Shown one piece after another: positions 737 through 63,430 of a DNA stretch of 64,000 nucleotides (positions are counted from its first letter, which is position 1; every line of letters begins with the position of its first letter). The stretch is from assembly GCA_950295325.1 (NCBI GenBank), contig OX485803.1:31372001-31436000 (forward strand), read 5' to 3'. Origin of the DNA: Polytrichum commune (Eukaryota > Streptophyta > Polytrichopsida > Polytrichales > Polytrichaceae). Both the position numbers and the translations under genes were made by a program. The notes beneath the pieces were generated by a model. The model was not told the DNA's origin and did no database searches. It was given only the letters and a program-made list of their open reading frames with translations.

Positions 737-1285
737 TATATAAATAAAAAGTGCACATGCACTAAGACATTCATTGCTTTCCTCTTCTATGCCCTTATCA
801 TCTCAATATTATGGGTCCACTCCACCACTCTAACCACACATAACACACCACCACACACACCATACCGAAACAACATAAACCACCCACTCCAAAAAAACTC
901 TATCACCATCCCATACCATCACCATTCCCACCCACACAACATACAAAATCCCACTCCACATTACCCTCAAACGACATACGCCACAACACCACCACCCATC
1001 CAACACATAACCCACATAGGCCACATTTACTACATATCCCACAAACAACTAAAATCCCCCAAATACATATCCATCCACTACTACACATGGAACAATTCCA
1101 CTATCATCCTATTGGGTGGTGATATCCACACAAATCCGGGTCCACTTTCCAACATCACCCAAAACCTCCCCTTAGAATATAAACAAAGACAAAAGCAATA
1201 TTTCATACTTGATACAACATCGCTCAAACCTCGCTACACACCTAGAAAGCCTATTCACACCCCACCTAACACATGGCACAACTAA
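737..1285 (+). pseudogene. LINE N-terminal region with 2A-like motif
   Basis: One frame is open from the first bases of the LINE to a TAA at 1,283-1,285 but contains no ATG, so the true start is lost or lay in another frame (an ATG at 789 is out of frame). A hydrophobic stretch (about 770-817) is followed by a Thr/Pro/His-rich segment. At 1,112-1,144 the frame reads LGGDIHTNPGP, which resembles the 2A ribosome-skipping consensus D-V/I-E-x-N-P-G-P except that the Glu is His. 2A peptides are known near the start of some APE-type LINEs of trypanosomes and marine invertebrates. Whether this one works is unknown. The frame then shifts into the next segment at about 1,270-1,285. Confidence 0.6.
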
Positions 1286-1646
1286 CATCCTTAACCATGA
1301 ACTATCACATCTCCAAAAGCACAAATCACTACTCTCAAAATATCCAATCCACCTCCAAATATATGTCCTCATAATAACATATAGCCCTATACCACAAATA
1401 TGCAACCAACGCATGATAACAGGCATGGACCCGATAGGTCATACCTTGCTACGGAAAATACATAAACTTCCAAATAACACACAATCACACATTCCCTTAA
1501 AAACCAACCCCACCTACAACCCAAAGCCCACCACCATAGCACAAGCCTACACACATATTAACACAAAAATAGCTAAAGGTGAAATCATAAATATTGCCAC
1601 CTTGACAAATGAACTTCCACACATACCCCCGCAAATCTTACAATAA
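1209..1646 (+). pseudogene. LINE segment before the APE domain, function unknown
   Basis: An open stretch of about 145 codons, of which the part after about 1,280 continues the LINE protein by frame shift from the preceding segment. It ends at a TAA (1,644-1,646), beyond which the same frame continues into the APE endonuclease, so the stop looks secondary. I recognise no domain. It is rich in Ile, Thr, Pro, His and Asn, following the A/C-rich composition of the whole element. Its position would suit an accessory or nucleic-acid-binding N-terminal domain, but no zinc finger is visible. Confidence 0.45.
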
Positions 1647-1759
1647 CTCACTAAATGCACCCTACCAATCATAGGATACCACCCAAACATAAACCAACCA
1701 CAAAGCACCCACACTCCACATACCACCACAACCGACGACACACACTCTACGTCACAACT

Positions 1760-2560
1760 AAAAATCATAACTTGAAATGCAGGATGCATCAATACCAGCC
1801 TCCCAGGCATACTAGAACTCACACAAACACTACACAAGGACCCACATATCATCCTTATCCAAGAAACCAAAATCCACAAATTCAAATCCACATCTTATAT
1901 AGATAGAAAACTCCAAGACTATAAAATCATATATAACAACTCAAATAACACTACCCAACAACCAAACAGATACTCCGAAACCAAAAAAGCCAGAGGAGGC
2001 ACACTTATTATGATACCAAAAACCATCCACACAAATGAAAACATAACCAAGATTCCCACCCAAGCACAATATCACCATATTTACAAGTTATCATGATAAA
2101 AAATAAACCAATCACCCCCATACTCCTCATAAACATGTATATGCCCACACACCCTCAAGACTTGCACTTAGTACAAGAAATCCAAATCCAAATCCAAACC
2201 CTAACCACAAACCACTCAACATCCCACATCATCCTTGCCGGAGACTTTAACCGAGACATACTACTAAAAGGACGATCATCCAACGGGATAACATCCCCCC
2301 CTAACCCAAATGACTACGAATGGGCTAGATTCACCCAAAGCATAGGTCTCAACATAATTCACAACCAAGCAAGCCATACAAGACAAGGAGGACATAACTA
2401 CACACTAACTAGCCTCATTGACAGTTTCTACTCTAACATCCCAAACCATAACACACTACAAAGCCACACAATCACCAACCTCAACCAAAACTCCGATCAC
2501 TACCCGGTACAACTAATCTTAGCCCCCAACAGCGTTATCATCAAAATAACACCAACCCCC
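1760..2560 (+). pseudogene. LINE APE-type endonuclease domain
   Basis: Apurinic-endonuclease-like nuclease that would nick target DNA. Signature residues are visible in order: the ITWNAG start motif (its Trp codon is now TGA, about 1,771), LIQETK with the catalytic Glu, RGGTLIMI, LINMYMP, AGDFNRD with the Asp and Asn (2,243-2,251), and NSDHYPVQ with the Asp-His pair (2,492-2,500). The frame shifts at about 2,090 between RGGT and NMYMP. All catalytic positions of the fold are kept, so the damage is in frame continuity. The domain precedes the reverse transcriptase as in other APE-type LINEs. Confidence 0.8.
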
Positions 2561-2584
2561 AGTCCCAACCCCGAATCACCTACC

Positions 2585-3423
2585 CTATATCAAAAACTAA
2601 CCTACAGACCCTGCACACCACCTTCCTCAACAAACAAAACCTAGCAATATCCAATCTCACAAACGTCCTAAAACAAGAACAACTCACACACCACCAATGG
2701 CAAGAAGCCAAAAACCGCTTCCATGAAATAATAAGCTTCCTTAGCACATGCATAGAACAAACATGCATGTCACACCCAGCACCCCCACTCCCATATAGAG
2801 CCAAACTACAAGGGGGATTCCTCCCTAGACAACAACAAAAAATATGGAAATCCCACCTTAAGACACACCACAACATCCGTAAAGCAATACACGTGGCATG
2901 TCAATACCCCCACACACAACTTCAAAACCACCCAGATATAATAACATTACTGTCACCTCTAAATATACACATTCCCCCACTCCCTACTAACCACACCGAA
3001 CAAGCGCAATAGATAGAAACATTAGCTAATATAGACAAAACAGCCAAAAACGAGGCTTACAAAATTACCGCCAAACAAGCCATGTTCAACATCAAAATTG
3101 TCATTAAAAAATATCGCACTCTACTTAATACTAAGCCTAAATCCATCCACAAAAAGATATTCCAGCCAGCAACCGAGAACTCCCTAGACTGCATACAAAA
3201 CCCATAGGGAACCATACTAACCAACCCCTTGGATATAGCCCACGAAATATATCGCACCCAACAATCGTCATTTCAACGTCAGGCCCCCAACTGCGAAGAC
3301 ACCATAGACCACCCAGACACTTGCATGTGCGCAATCCGCAAATACCCCTGGCACATGCAAGAAGGTATAATACTAGAAAAAAATAGTACCACAGGACACA
3401 CAAATTACCACACAATTTACTAG
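2585..3423 (+). pseudogene. LINE linker between endonuclease and reverse transcriptase
   Basis: Frame 1 continues the protein from about 2,590 with stops at 3,010 and 3,205, then shifts back at about 3,424. The content is polar and helical in character, with lysine- and glutamine-rich stretches. No separate domain is recognised. Comparable linkers precede the reverse transcriptase in other LINEs. Confidence 0.55.
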
Positions 3424-4710
3424 AACAACTTACGACAAATGCGTAAAAAGACTAACCAAAGGGAAAACCCCTAGACCAGACAATATTCCCAACAATATAA
3501 TCAAAACATTACCCCCATAATGCCACGACCTAATATATCTATTCTTTCACCACTGTTATAAACAAAGAGAAATCCCAACACAGTATAACCATCCTTCTAC
3601 ACAAAAAAAAGACCCCACCCAACTGGCCAACTACAGGCCAATCGCACTCGCAAATACAACCTATAAACTCTATACTAGCACCATTACAACTCTCCTCACC
3701 AGTTACGGCGAACAACACAGGTTGCTACACTTTAGCCAGGAAGGCTTTCGGCCACAAAGAAATACCTCCCGTCAAATCCAGATGATCCTAGCATCTCTTG
3801 AAGATGCAAGACTTACAAAAAAAGACATATACATCACATATATAGACTTTAGAAACGCATTCGGCTCTATCGACCATGCAAGGTTATTAGCACTCATGGA
3901 AGATCTCGGATATTCTACAGATGCAATCGAAATTATAGGCAATATATACAAGGATTCCACCACTCCATTTACGGGGAGCCATTTTGGCACAACACCCCCA
4001 ATTAATATTAGCCGAGGCACCATCCAGGGCGACACCCTTAGTCCATATCTTTTCATTATCTTTCTAGAACCGCTCCTGCGTTGGCTAGAAAAAGATAACA
4101 AGGGCTATCACTTCAGCACATTCCCATCATCGAGCACCACGTCAGTATATGCCAACGACCTAGCCATCCTATCCAACACAATACAGAACATTCAATCCCA
4201 AATTACTAAATTACAAAAATTTGCAGAATGGGCACACATGGACCTTAATCTAGCCAAGTGTGCCATTACAGGTTGTCCCAATAAGTCAAAACTAAAACCA
4301 AACACTTTCAAAGCCTTTATTCAATCACAACACATCACATACAAAAACAAAAACTTCCCAATTCTTACACAAAACGAACCCTACACGTACTTAGGTATCC
4401 AATTAGTCCCCTCCCTTAAATGGAATTTACAAAAAGAAATTACATTAAAGAAAGCCAAACAACAAGGACAAGTACTTGCCAACTCCCCGGCCAGCCTAAA
4501 ACAAAAAATACAAATTCTCAACACAGTTATCAAGCCCCGCATTGCATACGCATACTATGCGGTCCCTTTTTCAAAACCAGATATAAAAAAACTCGACCAA
4601 ATAATTAGCAAAATCACTAAAGAGGCGTGTAGAATACCTAGAAGCACAGCCAATATCCTTACTCACCTCTCCCACGAAAACTTTGGTATAAATGCCACCT
4701 CTTTACTACC
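3424..4710 (+). pseudogene. LINE reverse transcriptase domain, catalytic Asp lost
   Basis: RNA-dependent DNA polymerase. Visible motifs: GKTPRPDNIPN (motif 1), NYRPIALANTTYKL (motif 2), QEGFRPQRNTSRQI (motif 3), YIDFRNAFGSIDH (motif A, Asp at 3,845-3,847), RGTIQGDTLSPYLF (motif B), VYANDLAIL (motif C), then AKCAITG and YTYLGIQL. In motif C the first Asp of the Y-A-D-D box is Asn (AAC at 4,154-4,156), consistent with a single G-to-A change and predicted to abolish polymerisation. A stop (TAA, 3,518-3,520) lies between motifs 1 and 2. Frame 2 is then open without a break to about 6,000. Confidence 0.9.
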
Positions 4711-5850
4711 GGACTACATACACTGCATAGGCCAGCAATTGTTAGAAGCTCTTAACGACCAAGGTCAACTGGGCATCATATATCAAGGCCTAACTAAATA
4801 TATCACAGCCAAATACGGGGGCTCCCTACATCTACCTAGACTAAAACAACAAGCCTGCTCAAGATCACCCATAGCCCGCACGCTCTTCTTATTGAACAAA
4901 GAATACGAGATACATATAACCACCGCAATCAAAGCATTCCCCATAAAACAAACCCAACTCGAACTCAAATGGAAATCTACCCCTACATATGTCAGCTCAA
5001 CAGAAGAATCCAAAACACAATCCCAAAAATTCCTAGATAAATTATACACATATGGTATTACAACCCTATTACAAATCCAAAATACAACCACCAATGCTAT
5101 ACTCACACCGGAAGAATTCCGCACCATATACAAACATACCCCCAAAACTATCAAAGAGGCACTACATCAAGCAAAAACTCTATTCCCACACTCACAACCC
5201 CACACGCCCCAAAGAACCATACAACCACCGCCACCAACATATCTAGCAAACATACAACAACTAGACCCACCATTAGGTCGAGCCATACACAAAATAATAA
5301 AGAAAAAAACCACTACTAGAAAAGATAAGTGGGGTGCGCAAGCCATTAATAAATCATACTTATGCCTCTGGCAAAACACGAACAACACCATACAACAATG
5401 GCGCAATGAAGAAGACCTTTTACACCCGGATAATATCCTACTTGACCACAACCTACTAACCATAACACAATACAACAACGCCCTACTAGAACAAACAATG
5501 GCCAAAACATATGCCAACTACCTCACACATATCCAAACTAAAGATAAGAAATTCATCCAACCACCACTAAAAATCACCAACCTTACAACCTCCACCCAGG
5601 AATGTAACCCGGACAAAGACATACTAGTCAATAAACCAACTATCCAAATAAATACCTCAGTAGCCAACGTATATGACCAAAATGGAAACCACATTGCCAC
5701 CATTAATATAGATAGACTACAATGGCTTTGGAGCCAATTCACACATAATAAACAACAACATTTAACTAACTTCCTTCACCCACCACCCCAAGACTTTGAA
5801 ACCAAAGTACTATGGCTCGTCCAAAGGTATGTCACTATACTCCCCAAGAA
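4711..5850 (+). pseudogene. LINE region between reverse transcriptase and RNase H
   Basis: Continuous with the reverse transcriptase in the same frame. The first part is probably thumb (KPRIAYAYYAVPFSKPDI), as in LINE polymerases. The rest is long, basic and unrecognised. The protein shifts to frame 3 at about 5,820-5,870. Confidence 0.55.
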
Positions 5851-7010
5851 AAAAACCAAAGATAGTTCAACCACAAAACCTACATCAAACACTCCACCCC
5901 GAAATCATCAAAACACTAATCACAACATTCCAAATCACACACACCTACTATTCATCCCCCCTCACTTGCCCCATTCAAATAACACAATACCACTCCCCAC
6001 ATAACCGAGACATAATATTCGGCTCACTAGGTCACGCTAAATCCTCTAAATGGACAGGAATAGGCCTAGCTTTCCCCACGGACTACAACACAACGTTAGA
6101 AGCCATCCACTGGACTAGAATGGCCGCCAAGGAAGACCCCAAAATAGTTACCATCCTCATCGCCAACCATAAAGACTGGACAACACAAAACCTCCCACTC
6201 GCCACAAAACCCGACGTACACGTCATGGCAACCATACCACCACACACTATAAAATATAAACCTACACCTGAATGGCCAACATACTACCAATACGACGAAC
6301 CAGCACTCACATCAATCATTTGTGTACACAACCAAGTAACATTAAGTCCAAACGTCCGAACCCCACACACATTAAAACAAATCTTGCAACAACTAACTAA
6401 CACACATATAGACACCCACCCCATTAAGCCCATTCTCACACACTATAAAGTTAAACTCTCCAATATATGGAAAAATACCCCCAAAGTAAATATACCACAC
6501 ACTAATAATCACACCACCATACCAATGCCAAATACTTACACATACACCCACCCCCCCCCCCAAATTCCCCCCACAACAATGCGTATACACAGACGGCTCC
6601 TTCATCCCCCCAACAAAAAACTCCGAGGGACAAATTGTGGGCAATACTGCAGGATCGGGAGTATATAGCCCCAATAATAACACCCGTATAGCAAAACGAC
6701 TGCCAGGCTATCAAAATATACTTAGAGCCGAACTATATGCCATACTCCTCGCCATCAAAAACATAAAAATCACACAAACAGAAACACACATATTTACCGA
6801 CAGCCTCAACAGCATATACCTCATAAATAACCACATACAACACCCAACGTCACAACACCACCACCCTGACAAACTACTTATAGCCGCAATAGTAAGGAAG
6901 ATTTACTGGACCCCACACAAAATCTACATACATAAGGTCCGAGCGCACACGGGCATCACCGGAAATGAACTAGCCGATGACCTAGCCAATGAAGGGAACA
7001 ACTTAGAAAA
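5850..7010 (+). pseudogene. LINE RNase H domain
   Basis: RNase H type I fold that would degrade the RNA of an RNA-DNA hybrid. The part to about 6,550 is a linker in frame 3. At a run of 11 C (6,551-6,561) the protein shifts to frame 1, where the domain is complete: VYTDGSF (Asp 6,592-6,594), RAELYA (Glu 6,730-6,732), FTDSLNS (Asp 6,799-6,801) and HTGITGNELADDLAN (Asp 6,976-6,978). All four acidic catalytic positions are present. The C-run is a plausible slippage or sequencing-error site, so this particular frameshift is less certain than the stops elsewhere. Confidence 0.85.
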
Positions 7011-8010
7011 ACCAGAACAAACCCCACACATCCACATCGCCCGCCCCACCCCCTATTGGCTTGCCAGCTGCCCCACAGGCACACACGACGGAGCCATCCG
7101 TAACTTACGCACATTCATAACAAAAGCACACGACAACTTAGAAACAACCTTAGCCATAAATAAATTCCCATACGTCGATAAATGGCTCTCAAACACCCAA
7201 ATAAACCAAAAACTCTCTAATCATTTTTGGAATAATGATCAAATACCAGATACCCAAATCACCCAAACATTAAAGTTTCGATACGCTCAATATATGGGCA
7301 ACCATAGAAAAAGTATATTCTGGCCCCTCACACATCCAAACCCCAACTGCACACTTTGCCACAGAAATGAGAGAGACACGTGGCCGCACCTACTATCAAC
7401 ATGTGAACACCCATACTTAAAAGGTCTCCGAATCGCAAGACATAACAAAGCAGTACATCTGATCACACAAACATTACAAGCTAACAAACACACACGGTTC
7501 CTCACAAAAACCAATGCCGGACATCTCACCAACCGGCCACAAGAAAACACAGTCCCAGAATGGTTATTAACATGCACATGTACCCAAACGCCATGCCAAT
7601 GTCAAGCTAAACTTAGGCCTGACATCCTATGCATGATAGGTGCCCCAAATCACACCACCCCACCTATACTACCATCATCCAACCACACAGTACAATTTAT
7701 CGAATTCACTTACTGCCACGACAGATTCCCTGAACAAGCCATTGCACAGAAACACGCCAAATACGATCCACTAAATCACGCCATCCACAACAAGGGTTGG
7801 AAAACCAACCCTGTTATAACAATCACTGCAGGTGTATGAGGAGCCATACACGAACACTCCATCCAAAAACTAACGGACTTAAAAATCCCTAAAACCAATA
7901 TCAAAAAACTCATGAAAGATATACACCAAAACGCTATTAAATACCTCACGTACTTAGTACTTAATAAAAGAAAACTCGACAATAAACAACAACCCGTACC
8001 CCCACCTTAA
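7011..8010 (+). pseudogene. LINE C-terminus: CCHC finger and R2-like restriction endonuclease
   Basis: After RNase H comes a C-x2-C-x9-H-x4-C finger (Cys 7,348 and 7,357, His 7,387, Cys 7,402), then LRIARHNKAV, a pairing typical of R2-type elements. A PD-(D/E)xK-like core follows: RPD (7,615-7,623), a hydrophobic strand QFIEFTY with Glu at 7,702-7,704, and KHAKY (7,750-7,764). This is the arrangement of the restriction-like endonuclease of R2 LINEs. The final segment has one stop, TGA at 7,837-7,839, where the truncated copy at 41.8 kb has an Arg codon, so it is a point mutation. The protein ends at TAA 8,008-8,010. Confidence 0.75.
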
Positions 8011-8149
8011 CCAAAATTGGACTTTTAGAGAACCTCCCAGAGCCCACGGCATAAAACCACATACTACATCACGGAACCTGTGATTAGTATGAGGCCAACG
8101 GGCTCGAAGTCATGCTCGTGTGAAAATACGAGCGTTATTTTTTCTTTTC
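8011..8149 (+). other. LINE 3' UTR with hairpins
   Basis: Contains a 7-bp hairpin ATCACGG-AAC-CTGTGAT (8,068-8,084), the conserved block GGCCAACGGGCTCGAAGTCATG (8,093-8,114), an 8-bp hairpin with GAAA loop (8,114-8,133) and a T-rich tail. The block and first hairpin recur in the truncated LINE copy and in the SINE. 3' hairpins of this kind are the recognition signal for reverse transcriptase in stringent LINEs, and I infer that role here. Confidence 0.75.
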
Positions 8150-8160
8150 TGGAGGTGGTC
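8150..8160. repeat. Target site duplication of the LINE, right copy
   Basis: Exact copy of 725-735. Confidence 0.9.
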
Positions 8161-41399: not shown

Positions 41400-41679
41400 T
41401 AGCTTTACTTAGCCAAAAGTCACCAGCTTTTGCATGGTCAGTTACCAATAATTTTTGCCACAAATCAATGGGCCAGCCTAGTATTTGCACAAGTTTGATG
41501 GATTAACTTAACTGTAGGCGACACTCGGGAGTTGTTGTGCTTCAAAAACGAGCTTCCCAATGAGAAGTTTCCAGGCAGGCTTTGATTCGATTCCTCATAA
41601 CTTCAACAAACTTGTGGAGGGACGAGTTCAAACTTTCAAAGCCATCATGAACGACTTGTCCTTGTTGTTGTTGGCTCAC

Positions 41680-42125
41680 AACAGATTCCCTAAACAAGTC
41701 CTCACGCACAAGCACACCAAACACGACCCACTAATTAACACCATACAAAATAGGGGATGGAAAACCAACCCCCTCATTTATTATCGCAGCCGGAGTAAGA
41801 GGAGTTGTACACGAACACTCCATAAATGAACTCGCCAACCTAAAAATTCCAAAATCCAACATTAAAACCCTCGTGAAAAACATACATCAGAATGCCATTA
41901 AATACCTCACATATTTGGTTCTCAACAAAAGAAGACTCGATAATAAACGAGCCTATGTCTGTCCACCCTAATGAAATGGGATAACTAGTACACCACCAGA
42001 GCCCGCCTCCTGAAGGAGGCATAACACCTATGTTGCATCATGGAAAACCGTGATCAGCATTAAGCCAATGGGCTCACGTTCATGCTGGTACTTAGATACA
42101 AGTGTATTTTTTCCTTTTCTTTCGG
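41680..42125 (+). mobile_element. 5'-truncated copy of the Dualen-like LINE
   Basis: Homologous to LINE positions of about 7,720-8,149: it begins at CAACAGATTCCCT, encodes KHTKHDPLINTI, NRGWKTNP, AGVRGVVHEHSI and NAIKYLTYLVLNKRRLDNK with one frameshift at about 41,780, ends the protein at about 41,971, and continues into the same 3' UTR. Here the UTR keeps a hairpin lost from the long copy: GCCTCC-TGAA-GGAGGC (42,005-42,020), plus ATCATGG-AAAA-CCGTGAT (42,037-42,054). GGCTCAC flanks both sides (41,673-41,679 and 42,126-42,132), a possible target duplication. 5' truncation is typical of LINE insertion. Confidence 0.88.
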
Positions 42126-62289: not shown

Positions 62290-63430
62290 TCAATCCTCTC
62301 TCCCAACGTCATGCAAAAGGCACGCTTTCCGACACCCACCCGCTCCTTTGATTTGTTGGTGCGAATCCCGTACCCGGTCTACAATAGCACCACAAGTCTT
62401 TGCACGAAAGTGGACTTCTCTTGCCATTTCATGGTGTGTATTGAAATTCCACTCCCATCAAGCTCAAACTTATGAAGAAAATCGTAAGGTGAGATGGAAA
62501 GCTCATTCAACAACATTCATTCTTGAACCATACCCACTATGCTCTCAAAATTTTATAATCTTTCTTTCATTTTAAAACACGCATCGACCACAACTTCTTG
62601 ATGTCTTTGCAAAAGGGTCCGAGATGACCCTCGATTGTTGGGTGATAGTGGAGAGGTACCCATTTCCGAATGGAGTGGTTGGCGGTTCGATTCCTGCTGT
62701 GAAATCTTCCCTCTACTTTTCGGGAAAAAATTAGCTAGGTAGGTAGGAAGCCAAGAGCCCACCTACCGCAAGGTAGGCAGTAAACCCCACCCTGCATCAA
62801 GAGGATTCTTGCAGCAAGGTTGGGCCAACAAGCTCAAATTCATGTCGGATTGCCCAACGTTGGTTAATTATTTATTTGTTCCTTGCAAAAGACACAGTTT
62901 TCAATCTCATTAAATGTTTCGATTTGTAGGTGTGAATTTTGTACCCAATGTACAATGACATAAGTGTTTACTCAAAAGTAAACTTCTTGACCATTTCATG
63001 GCATATTTGACTCTACTCCCATGAAGCTCAAATCTATAAAACTATATTATATGGTGAGATGGCAAACTTATGGTGACAAGCTCATTTAACAACATAGTTA
63101 TGCATGATTCTTGAACAATACACTATGTTCTCTCTTAATTTTTTCATTTCCAAATCACCCATCAAACAATCTTCCCAACGTCTTTGTGAAAAGACACGGT
63201 TTTTGACATCACCCATTGCTTTGCATTTATAAGTGTGAGTTCCGTAGCCAATTCACAAAAATAAAAGTCTTTGCACAAAAGTGGTCCCCATGGCCATTTC
63301 ATGGTACATATTCAGCTCAACTCCCATAAAACTCAAATCTTCTTTTTAAAAGATTCATAAAGTGATGGCAATGTGTGGTGGCAAGCTCCTTCAACAACAT
63401 AAGAATGCATGAATCATTATTATGTCCTTC
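62290..63430. repeat. ~300-bp tandem repeat, three units, middle one split by a SINE
   Basis: Anchor words CAACGTCATGCAAAAGGCAC (about 62,305), GATGTCTTTGCAAAAG...ACACAGTTTT (about 62,600 plus 62,892) and CAACGTCTTTGTGAAAAGAC (about 63,178) recur, as do TTGCCATTTCATGGTGTGTA-like, ACTCCCATCAAGCTCAAA and GGTGAGATGG. The period is about 300 bp once the SINE is removed. The third unit is partial. Non-coding in its present form. Confidence 0.75.
62616..62882 (+). mobile_element. tRNA-type SINE, copy 2, with LINE-derived 3' tail
   Basis: A 267-bp element with a 9-bp target duplication TTGCAAAAG (62,607-62,615 and 62,883-62,891). A box TAGTGGAGAGG (62,646-62,656) and B box GGTTCGATTCC (62,684-62,694) are Pol III promoter elements. 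From about 62,754 it matches the LINE 3' UTR: AGAGCCC, hairpin CCTACC-GCAA-GGTAGG (62,762-62,777), a GCATCA block, hairpin CAAGA-GGAT-TCTTG (62,798-62,811), GGCCAACAAGCTCAAATTCA (62,823-62,842) and a T-rich end. It encodes no protein and would need the LINE enzymes to move. Confidence 0.9.

What the first reader, a model, noticed from the sequence alone, without database searches (positions are those of the whole stretch)
62616..62882. SINE sharing its 3' tail with the dual-endonuclease LINE
The tRNA-like head (A and B boxes) is joined to about 120 bp that matches the LINE 3' UTR at 8,034-8,149 and 41,998-42,125 in the same order: AGAGCCC, hairpin, CATCA block, hairpin, GGCCAAC..GCTC.AA.TCATG, T-rich tail. 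SINE-LINE tail sharing is the known signature of SINE mobilisation by a partner LINE. A pair with a dual-endonuclease LINE is, to my knowledge, undescribed.
Basis: partly seen in the sequence, partly recalled or inferred. Interest (0 to 1): 0.9.

Follow-up and report, generated by a model that had tools for sequence, protein, structure and literature searches.

The report
Moss SINE sharing a LINE's tail
A short parasitic DNA repeat in what looks like a moss genome ends in the same folded RNA tail as a large jumping gene that appears to carry two different DNA-cutting enzymes, which is how such short parasites usually hitch a ride; pairs of this kind were already listed from a green alga, so this extends a known arrangement to a land plant.

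Summary
The window element is a SINE at 62,616-62,879 between 12-bp target duplications and belongs to a large family. Its last ~115 nt are homologous to the 3' UTR of the window's LINE family: a covariance model built only from 25 LINE tails finds all 26 SINE tails given to it (E 1.5e-14 to 4.2e-5). LINE and SINE share a four-helix RNA; five base pairs differ on both sides between the usual LINE and SINE states yet stay paired. Of 20 loci fetched by the head alone, 17 carry the tail and 3 break off inside it. Of 20 loci fetched by the SINE 3' end alone, 20 are this SINE. The LINE encodes APE, an R2-like RT, RNase H and restriction-like-endonuclease motifs. The genome is most likely a moss. 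Mobilisation by this LINE lineage is the best explanation, but inferred. 'Undescribed' is wrong: Ohshima 2013 (PMC3747384) lists Chlamydomonas SINEX families with RandI/Dualen tails. What appears new is the land-plant occurrence and the covariation. The SINE ends in (TTTA)n, the LINE in (CTTTT)n; no LINE with the SINE's 3' end was found.

The parts
62616..62879 (+). SINE copy, complete (head ~110 bases, linker, tail, TTTA-type 3' repeat)
   Evidence: sharp 5' end in aligned copies, flanking duplication
62604..62615 (+). 5' target-site duplication TCTTTGCAAAAG
   Evidence: 1 mismatch to the 3' copy
62880..62891 (+). 3' target-site duplication TCCTTGCAAAAG
62639..62651 (+). A-box-like motif TGGGTGATAGTGG
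   Evidence: motif definition recalled, activity not tested
62684..62694 (+). B box GGTTCGATTCC
   Evidence: exact in 23 of 45 other SINE loci, core GTTCRA in 40 of 45
62752..62867 (+). LINE-type structured tail of the SINE (helices P1-P4)
   Evidence: LINE-only model R1, 40.5 bits, E 6.8e-8
1115..8150 (+). Dual-endonuclease LINE copy A, damaged, recognised from the NPGP motif onward (its 5' part with ORF1 presumably lies before the window): APE 2,120-2,509, RT ~3,605-4,405, RNase H ~6,577-6,996, zinc knuckle 7,348, PD motif 7,612, E motif 7,699, stop in frame at 7,837
8037..8142 (+). 3' tail of LINE copy A (hairpin P2 largely deleted); T-rich end runs to ~8,150
   Evidence: 98.1 bits, E 5.1e-22; not a training row of the model
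41677..42123 (+). 3' fragment of a second LINE copy (B): end of the RLE region and 3' UTR
41996..42112 (+). 3' tail of LINE copy B
   Evidence: 106.4 bits (a training row of the model)

Best explanation
A non-autonomous SINE is copied in trans by a Dualen/RandI-like LINE lineage of this moss. Steps: (1) RNA polymerase III transcribes the SINE from its internal boxes (inferred from motifs). (2) The last ~115 nt of the RNA fold like the LINE's own 3' UTR: closing stem P1 (AGAGCCC/GGGCTC), hairpins P2 and P3, then 3' hairpin P4 and a short T-rich repeat (homology and covariation shown; folding in cells inferred). (3) The LINE's reverse transcriptase recognises this structure and starts target-primed reverse transcription at the 3' repeat, leaving target duplications of about 9-15 bp (duplications shown; recognition inferred). 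The SINE's (TTTA)n end in place of the LINE's T-run and (CTTTT)n may let Pol III read to the end, since runs of four or more T end its transcripts (established knowledge, recalled; its role here is inference). The SINE copies examined are diverged while some LINE copies are nearly identical, so the partner was probably an earlier member of the LINE family.
For: LINE-only model finds 26 of 26 SINE tails and 17 of 20 head-selected loci, the other 3 breaking off inside the tail. Five pairs differ on both sides between the commonest LINE and SINE states and stay paired (41-69 UA/CG, 42-68 AU/CG, 51-60 CG/AU, 53-58 GC/AU, 97-115 CG/UA; columns of A5). On A5 93.1% of cells pair against 32-40% with partners slid; 64 cells changed on both sides against 18.7 in shuffles (0 of 500). 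All 26 SINEs: 597 of 753 cells paired (79%) against 26-44% slid. The likeness begins at P1: the 45 bases upstream are no closer than shuffled letters would often be (mean 0.50 over 53 LINEs against 0.46; 15% of shuffles reach 0.50). Target duplications in 18 of 26 SINEs at a score reached by 0 of 650 mismatched flank pairings. LINE: APE, RT, RNase H by Pfam; the five best PDB sequences for the RT are three named R2 and two named reverse transcriptase-like protein, which I recall to be Bombyx R2 (1.2e-39 to 2.3e-24). Recent LINE activity: three other copies 99% identical to L083 over ~1.65 kb. T runs of 4 or more within 16 nt after P4: 5 of 39 SINEs, 46 of 53 LINEs.
Against: The sequence match is moderate (63% on average) and no LINE with the SINE's own 3' end was found: GGCGTTATTTATTTA occurs once in the assembly, no more than its reversed control, and 20 of 20 sampled ACGTTGGTTATTTATTTA sites are this SINE. 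Folded without the LINEs, the 26 SINE tails give the same P3 but other partners for the P1 and P4 strands, with no covariation support. Some LINE pairs are lost in the SINE (47-64: 0 of 26; 101-111: 0 of 26; 48-63: 8 of 26; 10-80: 9 of 26). The number of further pair types on A5 is not exceptional (28 against 25.9; 63 of 500 shuffles). No tRNA homology by covariance model. SINE transcription and trans-mobilisation were not tested.
Confidence: 0.85

Rival explanations
1. Within the reading above, a narrower rival: the SINE's partner was a separate LINE lineage of the same clade, ending in (TTTA)n and now lost or not sampled; the (CTTTT)n LINEs are its cousins, not the machine that copied the SINE.
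For: No LINE with the SINE-type 3' end found; the closest LINE tails reach a mean identity of only 0.66-0.67 to the SINEs; SINE copies show 4-10% non-CpG divergence from their consensus (mean 0.068, 45 copies), so an old partner could be gone.
Against: The 55 LINE tails read share the blocks and a T-rich end, though they were located by those blocks and come from best-scored copies only. A change of tail repeat can arise in the SINE alone.
Confidence: 0.3
2. The tail is a fossil of the SINE's birth (a head fused to a LINE 3' end) and is not recognised; another LINE with relaxed template choice copies the SINE.
For: P1 and P4 pairing is partly lost in SINE copies, and the SINE-only fold does not recover it.
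Against: Five pairs differ on both sides from the LINEs while staying paired, which is not expected of an unused fossil; the SINE has no poly(A) end; 20 of 20 head-selected loci keep the tail at least in part.
Confidence: 0.08
3. Chance or convergent similarity of two unrelated 3' ends, or a chance fusion in this one copy.
For: Sequence identity alone is moderate.
Against: 26 of 26 SINE tails at E 4.2e-5 or better with a model that contains no SINE; shuffled pairs reach at most 0.553 identity; the same tail in 17 of 20 further loci.
Confidence: 0.01

Closest known systems
Chlamydomonas reinhardtii SINEX-1/2/4/5/6_CR with RandI/Dualen LINEs (Ohshima 2013 Tables 1-2, PMC3747384; Cognat et al. 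2008 as cited there, not held)
   Same: SINE sharing its 3' end with a LINE of the dual-endonuclease group; short 3' repeats other than poly(A) ((ATT)n, (CTTT)n there; (TTTA)n and (CTTTT)n here)
   Different: Green alga there, moss here; of the RandI-tailed SINEs only SINEX-5/6 are listed with a tRNA promoter; homology of the tails across the two organisms could not be tested here
Monocot ZmSINE2/SINE2_SBi with L1-clade LINE1-1_ZM (same paper: tables, figure legends and passages seen)
   Same: Land-plant SINE/LINE pair with a 3' hairpin conserved through compensatory mutations, T-type 3' repeat
   Different: L1-clade partner and a single hairpin model there; here four helices and an APE+RLE-type LINE with R2-like RT
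Entamoeba EhLSINE1/2 with EhLINE1/EhRLE1 and EhLINE2/EhRLE3 (same Table 1)
   Same: SINE-like element with the tail of a LINE named for its RLE
   Different: Promoter listed as unknown; APE absent in that LINE (recalled)
R2 retrotransposons
   Same: RT nearest among solved structures; the zinc knuckle and following helix of the RLE region match two chains that I recall to be Bombyx R2 (E 0.57); 3' UTR recognised by RT (PMC3747384 section 1.4)
   Different: R2 has no APE or RNase H and is site-specific (recalled); the copies of this LINE that I fetched lie in unlike flanks

Membership tests
Dualen/RandI LINE | APE-type endonuclease domain | tested here: met
   Exo_endo_phos_2 at 361-490 (9.7e-8) in copy L083, also in L084 and the window copy
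Dualen/RandI LINE | Restriction-like endonuclease (RLE) in the same protein, C-terminal | tested here: inconclusive
   CCHC knuckle and PD...E...K invariant in 7 of 7 aligned copies (motif meaning recalled); a profile of that region hits only two PDB sequences up to E 10, at E 0.57-0.58, which I recall to be Bombyx R2; AlphaFold model without alignment unusable, mean pLDDT 33.4
Dualen/RandI LINE | RNase H domain | tested here: met
   RNase_H 1853-1990, E 1.3e-14; RNase H in Dualen/RandI stated in PMC4640811 (passage)
Dualen/RandI LINE | RT placed in the Dualen clade by phylogeny | not testable with these tools
   No reference Dualen sequences on hand; RT nearest to R2 among solved structures
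SINE2/tRNA | Internal Pol III promoter boxes | tested here: met
   By motif only: exact B box and A-box-like motif 32 nt apart in the window copy; core B box in 40 of 45 other loci; activity not tested
SINE2/tRNA | Head homologous to a tRNA | tested here: not met
   No Rfam tRNA match at E up to 5 in 10 of 45 SINE loci held. It may work like a tRNA-type SINE; I do not file it as tRNA-derived
SINE with stringent-type LINE tail | 3' end homologous to the 3' UTR of a LINE in the same genome | tested here: met
SINE with stringent-type LINE tail | Target-site duplications | tested here: met
   18 of 26 copies at score 9 or more, null 0 of 650
SINE with stringent-type LINE tail | LINE protein copies the SINE RNA | not testable with these tools
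   needs an assay

The most novel reading that the evidence does not exclude
The recognition signal of a dual-endonuclease LINE is a four-helix RNA of ~115 nt that is read by shape more than by sequence: the SINE has replaced several base pairs but kept the fold, and has swapped the T-run ending for (TTTA)n so that Pol III can transcribe through it. With the Chlamydomonas pairs, this would make the partnership of SINEs with Dualen-type LINEs a recurrent or very old feature of green plants, still visible in mosses.
Probability: 0.35. Interest if true: 0.65.

Novelty: new member of a known kind. Interest (0 to 1): 0.5.

Why it matters
It gives a land-plant example, with an apparently intact LINE ORF2 (2,328 aa) and a SINE family with complete copies, of a pair type that I found only for Chlamydomonas in the papers I could search. 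The many LINE subfamilies and the SINE provide natural compensatory changes that outline the RNA element the enzyme should recognise, so recognition by an APE+RLE-type LINE can be tested directly.

Tried and rejected
Rejected: chance fusion in one copy; SINE as an internally deleted LINE (blastn of the SINE against two long LINE copies: below E 0.5 only in the tail); the weak model hit at window 32,532 (E 0.2) looks like chance on reading.

Search for a LINE ending like the SINE (one match, reversed control three). Rfam scan of 10 SINE loci. LINE target duplications: of 9 copies examined, four look clear by eye (9-20 bp: L041, C6:8303558, C2:56476803, C5:12300191), the other five are unclear; none was found for L084; no null was run. 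PCIF1 with LINE or retrotransposon: 8 of 5,119 papers listed, none on point. Polytrichum or other moss genome notes: 10 of 117 listed, none identified as this assembly.

Dropped or selected rows: the model's rows are 24 of 25 non-redundant LINE tails (L068 left out for an internal duplication, L022 re-trimmed) plus window copy B; the 25 came from 55 tails, themselves from best-scored matches. The identities still include L068 and the badly trimmed L022, and its shuffle keeps single letters only. Alignment A5 holds 18 of those 25 model rows and 8 of 26 SINE tails, the latter chosen partly because their P4 strand is less decayed; one search gives the count for all 26. In one search the 5' end was misplaced in at least L014, which counts as a miss. 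In one search the anchor was found in 39 of 45 SINE and 53 of 55 LINE loci. SINE copies were found by likeness to the window copy, so divergences are lower bounds. Head-selected loci: 20 of the 25 head matches that were not. SINE 3'-end sample: 20 of 140 sites, chosen from the 100 listed. The SINE consensus used has CpG-decayed sites set to CpG.

It corrected one statement (the exact B box is in 23 of 45 loci, not in most) and replaced a by-eye remark on the upstream bases by a count; the limits of LINE copy B, the APE coordinates, the naming of the R2 chains and the number of extra units in L068 were also mended.

Full report
What the genome is. The window lies in a 408-Mb assembly of 64 contigs; the seven large contigs that I met are 42-78 Mb. 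PsaA and PsaB of the 146,561-base contig C8 match solved photosystem I chains 8HTU, 6L35 and 7KSQ/7XQP best, ahead of the other sequences listed (60 of 83 shown in each search). 8HTU, 7KSQ and 7XQP are from the moss Physcomitrium patens (passages and legends of PMC10005731 and PMC13066549; 6L35 recalled). I conclude it is most likely a moss; the species is not known to me.

The SINE. The query 62,616-62,882 has 40 scored matches of 2,696 rough candidates, 39 starting by position 6 and 40 reaching position 251 of 267. Alignment of the window copy with 20 others shows a sharp start at GGTCCGAG, a head with a B box in the consensus, a linker, the tail, and a (TTTA)n end of variable length. Target duplications flank the copies: 18 of 26 copies reach a score reached by none of 650 mismatched flank pairs; those 18 are 9-15 bp long. 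Mean non-CpG divergence from the consensus is 0.068 (0.039-0.103) over 45 copies, selected by likeness to the window copy or its head. An exact 18-mer of the 3' end occurs 140 times, its reversed control never. The exact B box is in 23 of 45 fetched loci and its core in 40.

The LINE. Window copy A has APE, RT and RNase H by Pfam and, further on, a zinc knuckle and PD/E/K motifs. An apparently intact copy, L083, has ORF1 (303 aa; its start lies near the edge of the fetched stretch) and ORF2 (2,328 aa) with a GDIHPNPGP motif near the start (2A-like by recall), APE, RT, RNase H and the RLE-type motifs in one frame. The five best PDB sequences for it are R2 proteins by name (three) or by my recall (two named reverse transcriptase-like protein), 1.2e-39 to 2.3e-24, over the RT. 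A profile of the RLE region hits only those two of 177,635 sequences up to E 10, at E 0.57-0.58, at the knuckle and the following helix. I take the LINE as dual-endonuclease, with the RLE half resting on motifs and order. The family is large: 150 of about 5,000 rough candidates were scored in each of two searches, with E below 1e-90 throughout, and three copies are 99% identical to L083 over about 1.65 kb.

The shared tail. Fifty-five LINE 3' ends were read besides the two in the window. They share AGAGCCC, hairpin P2, hairpin P3, GGGCTC closing P1, hairpin P4 and a T-rich end. RNAalifold on 25 rows gives 31 pairs, 11 of them with changes on both sides in some row. A model from these LINE rows alone finds every SINE tail given to it, 26 of 26, E 1.5e-14 to 4.2e-5. 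On an alignment of 18 LINE and 8 SINE tails the structure is kept in 93.1% of cells against 32-40% with slid partners; 64 cells have changes on both sides against 18.7 in shuffles and the covariation score is 0.295 against 0.151 (0 of 500 each); pairs with a change on both sides are 11 against 7.4 (4 of 500); the number of further pair types, 28 against 25.9, is not exceptional (63 of 500). Five pairs differ on both sides between the usual LINE and the usual SINE state. Over all 26 SINEs 597 of 753 cells pair, against 26-44% slid. The 45 bases upstream of P1 are not clearly alike (mean identity 0.50 over 53 LINEs, shuffled 0.46; 15% of shuffles reach 0.50), so the likeness starts at P1.

Against. 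The SINE-only fold keeps P3 but re-pairs the P1 and P4 strands. Pairs 47-64 and 101-111 are lost in 26 of 26 SINEs. LINE and SINE end in different short repeats, and no LINE with the SINE end was found. The SINE partner may thus be a lost cousin of the LINEs seen.

Does the SINE always carry the tail? Of 40 head-only matches (one further inverted match lies beside one of them) 25 were not, and I fetched 20 of these. The model finds the tail in 17 of 20; the other three keep the head, linker and the start of the tail and break off at consensus positions 159, 191 and 198 of 263. Conversely, of 20 sites chosen by the SINE 3' end, 20 are this SINE, 18 of them starting at position 7 or earlier, one at 19 and one truncated at 116.

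Mechanism. Shown: family, duplications, shared and covarying tail, LINE coding capacity, near-identical LINE copies. Inferred: Pol III transcription, recognition of the fold by the LINE RT, TPRT in trans. The T-run difference (T of 4 or more within 16 nt after P4 in 5 of 39 SINEs and 46 of 53 LINEs) fits a need to avoid Pol III termination; the absence of T runs in the 247-base body of the consensus is not by itself unusual.

Prior knowledge. Ohshima 2013 (PMC3747384: passages, section 1.4, and part 1 of 2 of the tables section read) lists SINEX-1, -2, -4 and -5/-6_CR of Chlamydomonas with RandI-2/DualenCr3, RandI-2 (RandI-3) or RandI-5 tails and 3' repeats (ATT)n or (CTTT)n. The paper it cites for these SINEs (Cognat 2008) and the Dualen paper (Kojima and Fujiwara 2005) are not held. 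Dualen LINEs are reported in Chlamydomonas relatives (PMC8226300, passages) and cryptophytes (PMC12747079, passage). Searches for Dualen with SINE, with RandI/SINEX/Chlamydomonas and with plant were listed in full (3, 21 and 21 papers), as was dual endonuclease (17); those for Dualen/moss/bryophyte, SINE/moss/bryophyte and short interspersed/moss/partner LINE only in part (15 of 2,118, 15 of 24, 20 of 260). These listings of open-licence papers showed no land-plant Dualen/SINE pair. Subscription papers and Repbase were not searchable.

Verdict. A real, well-supported SINE/LINE pair; a new member of a known kind, of moderate interest because it brings the dual-endonuclease pair to a land plant with a structure that can be tested.

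Noticed in passing
L083 ORF2 residues 1588-1676; L084 ORF2 residues 1414-1500: A region between RT and RNase H matches Pfam PCIF1_WW (E 2.9e-6 and 4e-6, below Pfam's cut-off) in both long LINE copies; meaning unknown.
   Followed up: partly
window 1115-1144; L083 near the ORF2 start: GGDIHTNPGP / CGDIHPNPGP resembles a 2A-type ribosome-skipping motif (recalled) at the start of the LINE ORF2.
   Followed up: no
G000:C6:35630739-35631000: Two SINE heads in opposite orientation about 60 bases apart, the second matching the query at 80%.
   Followed up: no
LINE hairpin P4, alignment A1 columns 98 and 112: A G-G mismatch inside the 3' hairpin stands in 14 of 25 LINE tails; at the same place 6 of the 8 SINEs of A5 have G-C.
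   Followed up: no
L068: One LINE tail carries three extra tandem GGGCTAAC units at the 3' strand of P1.
   Followed up: no
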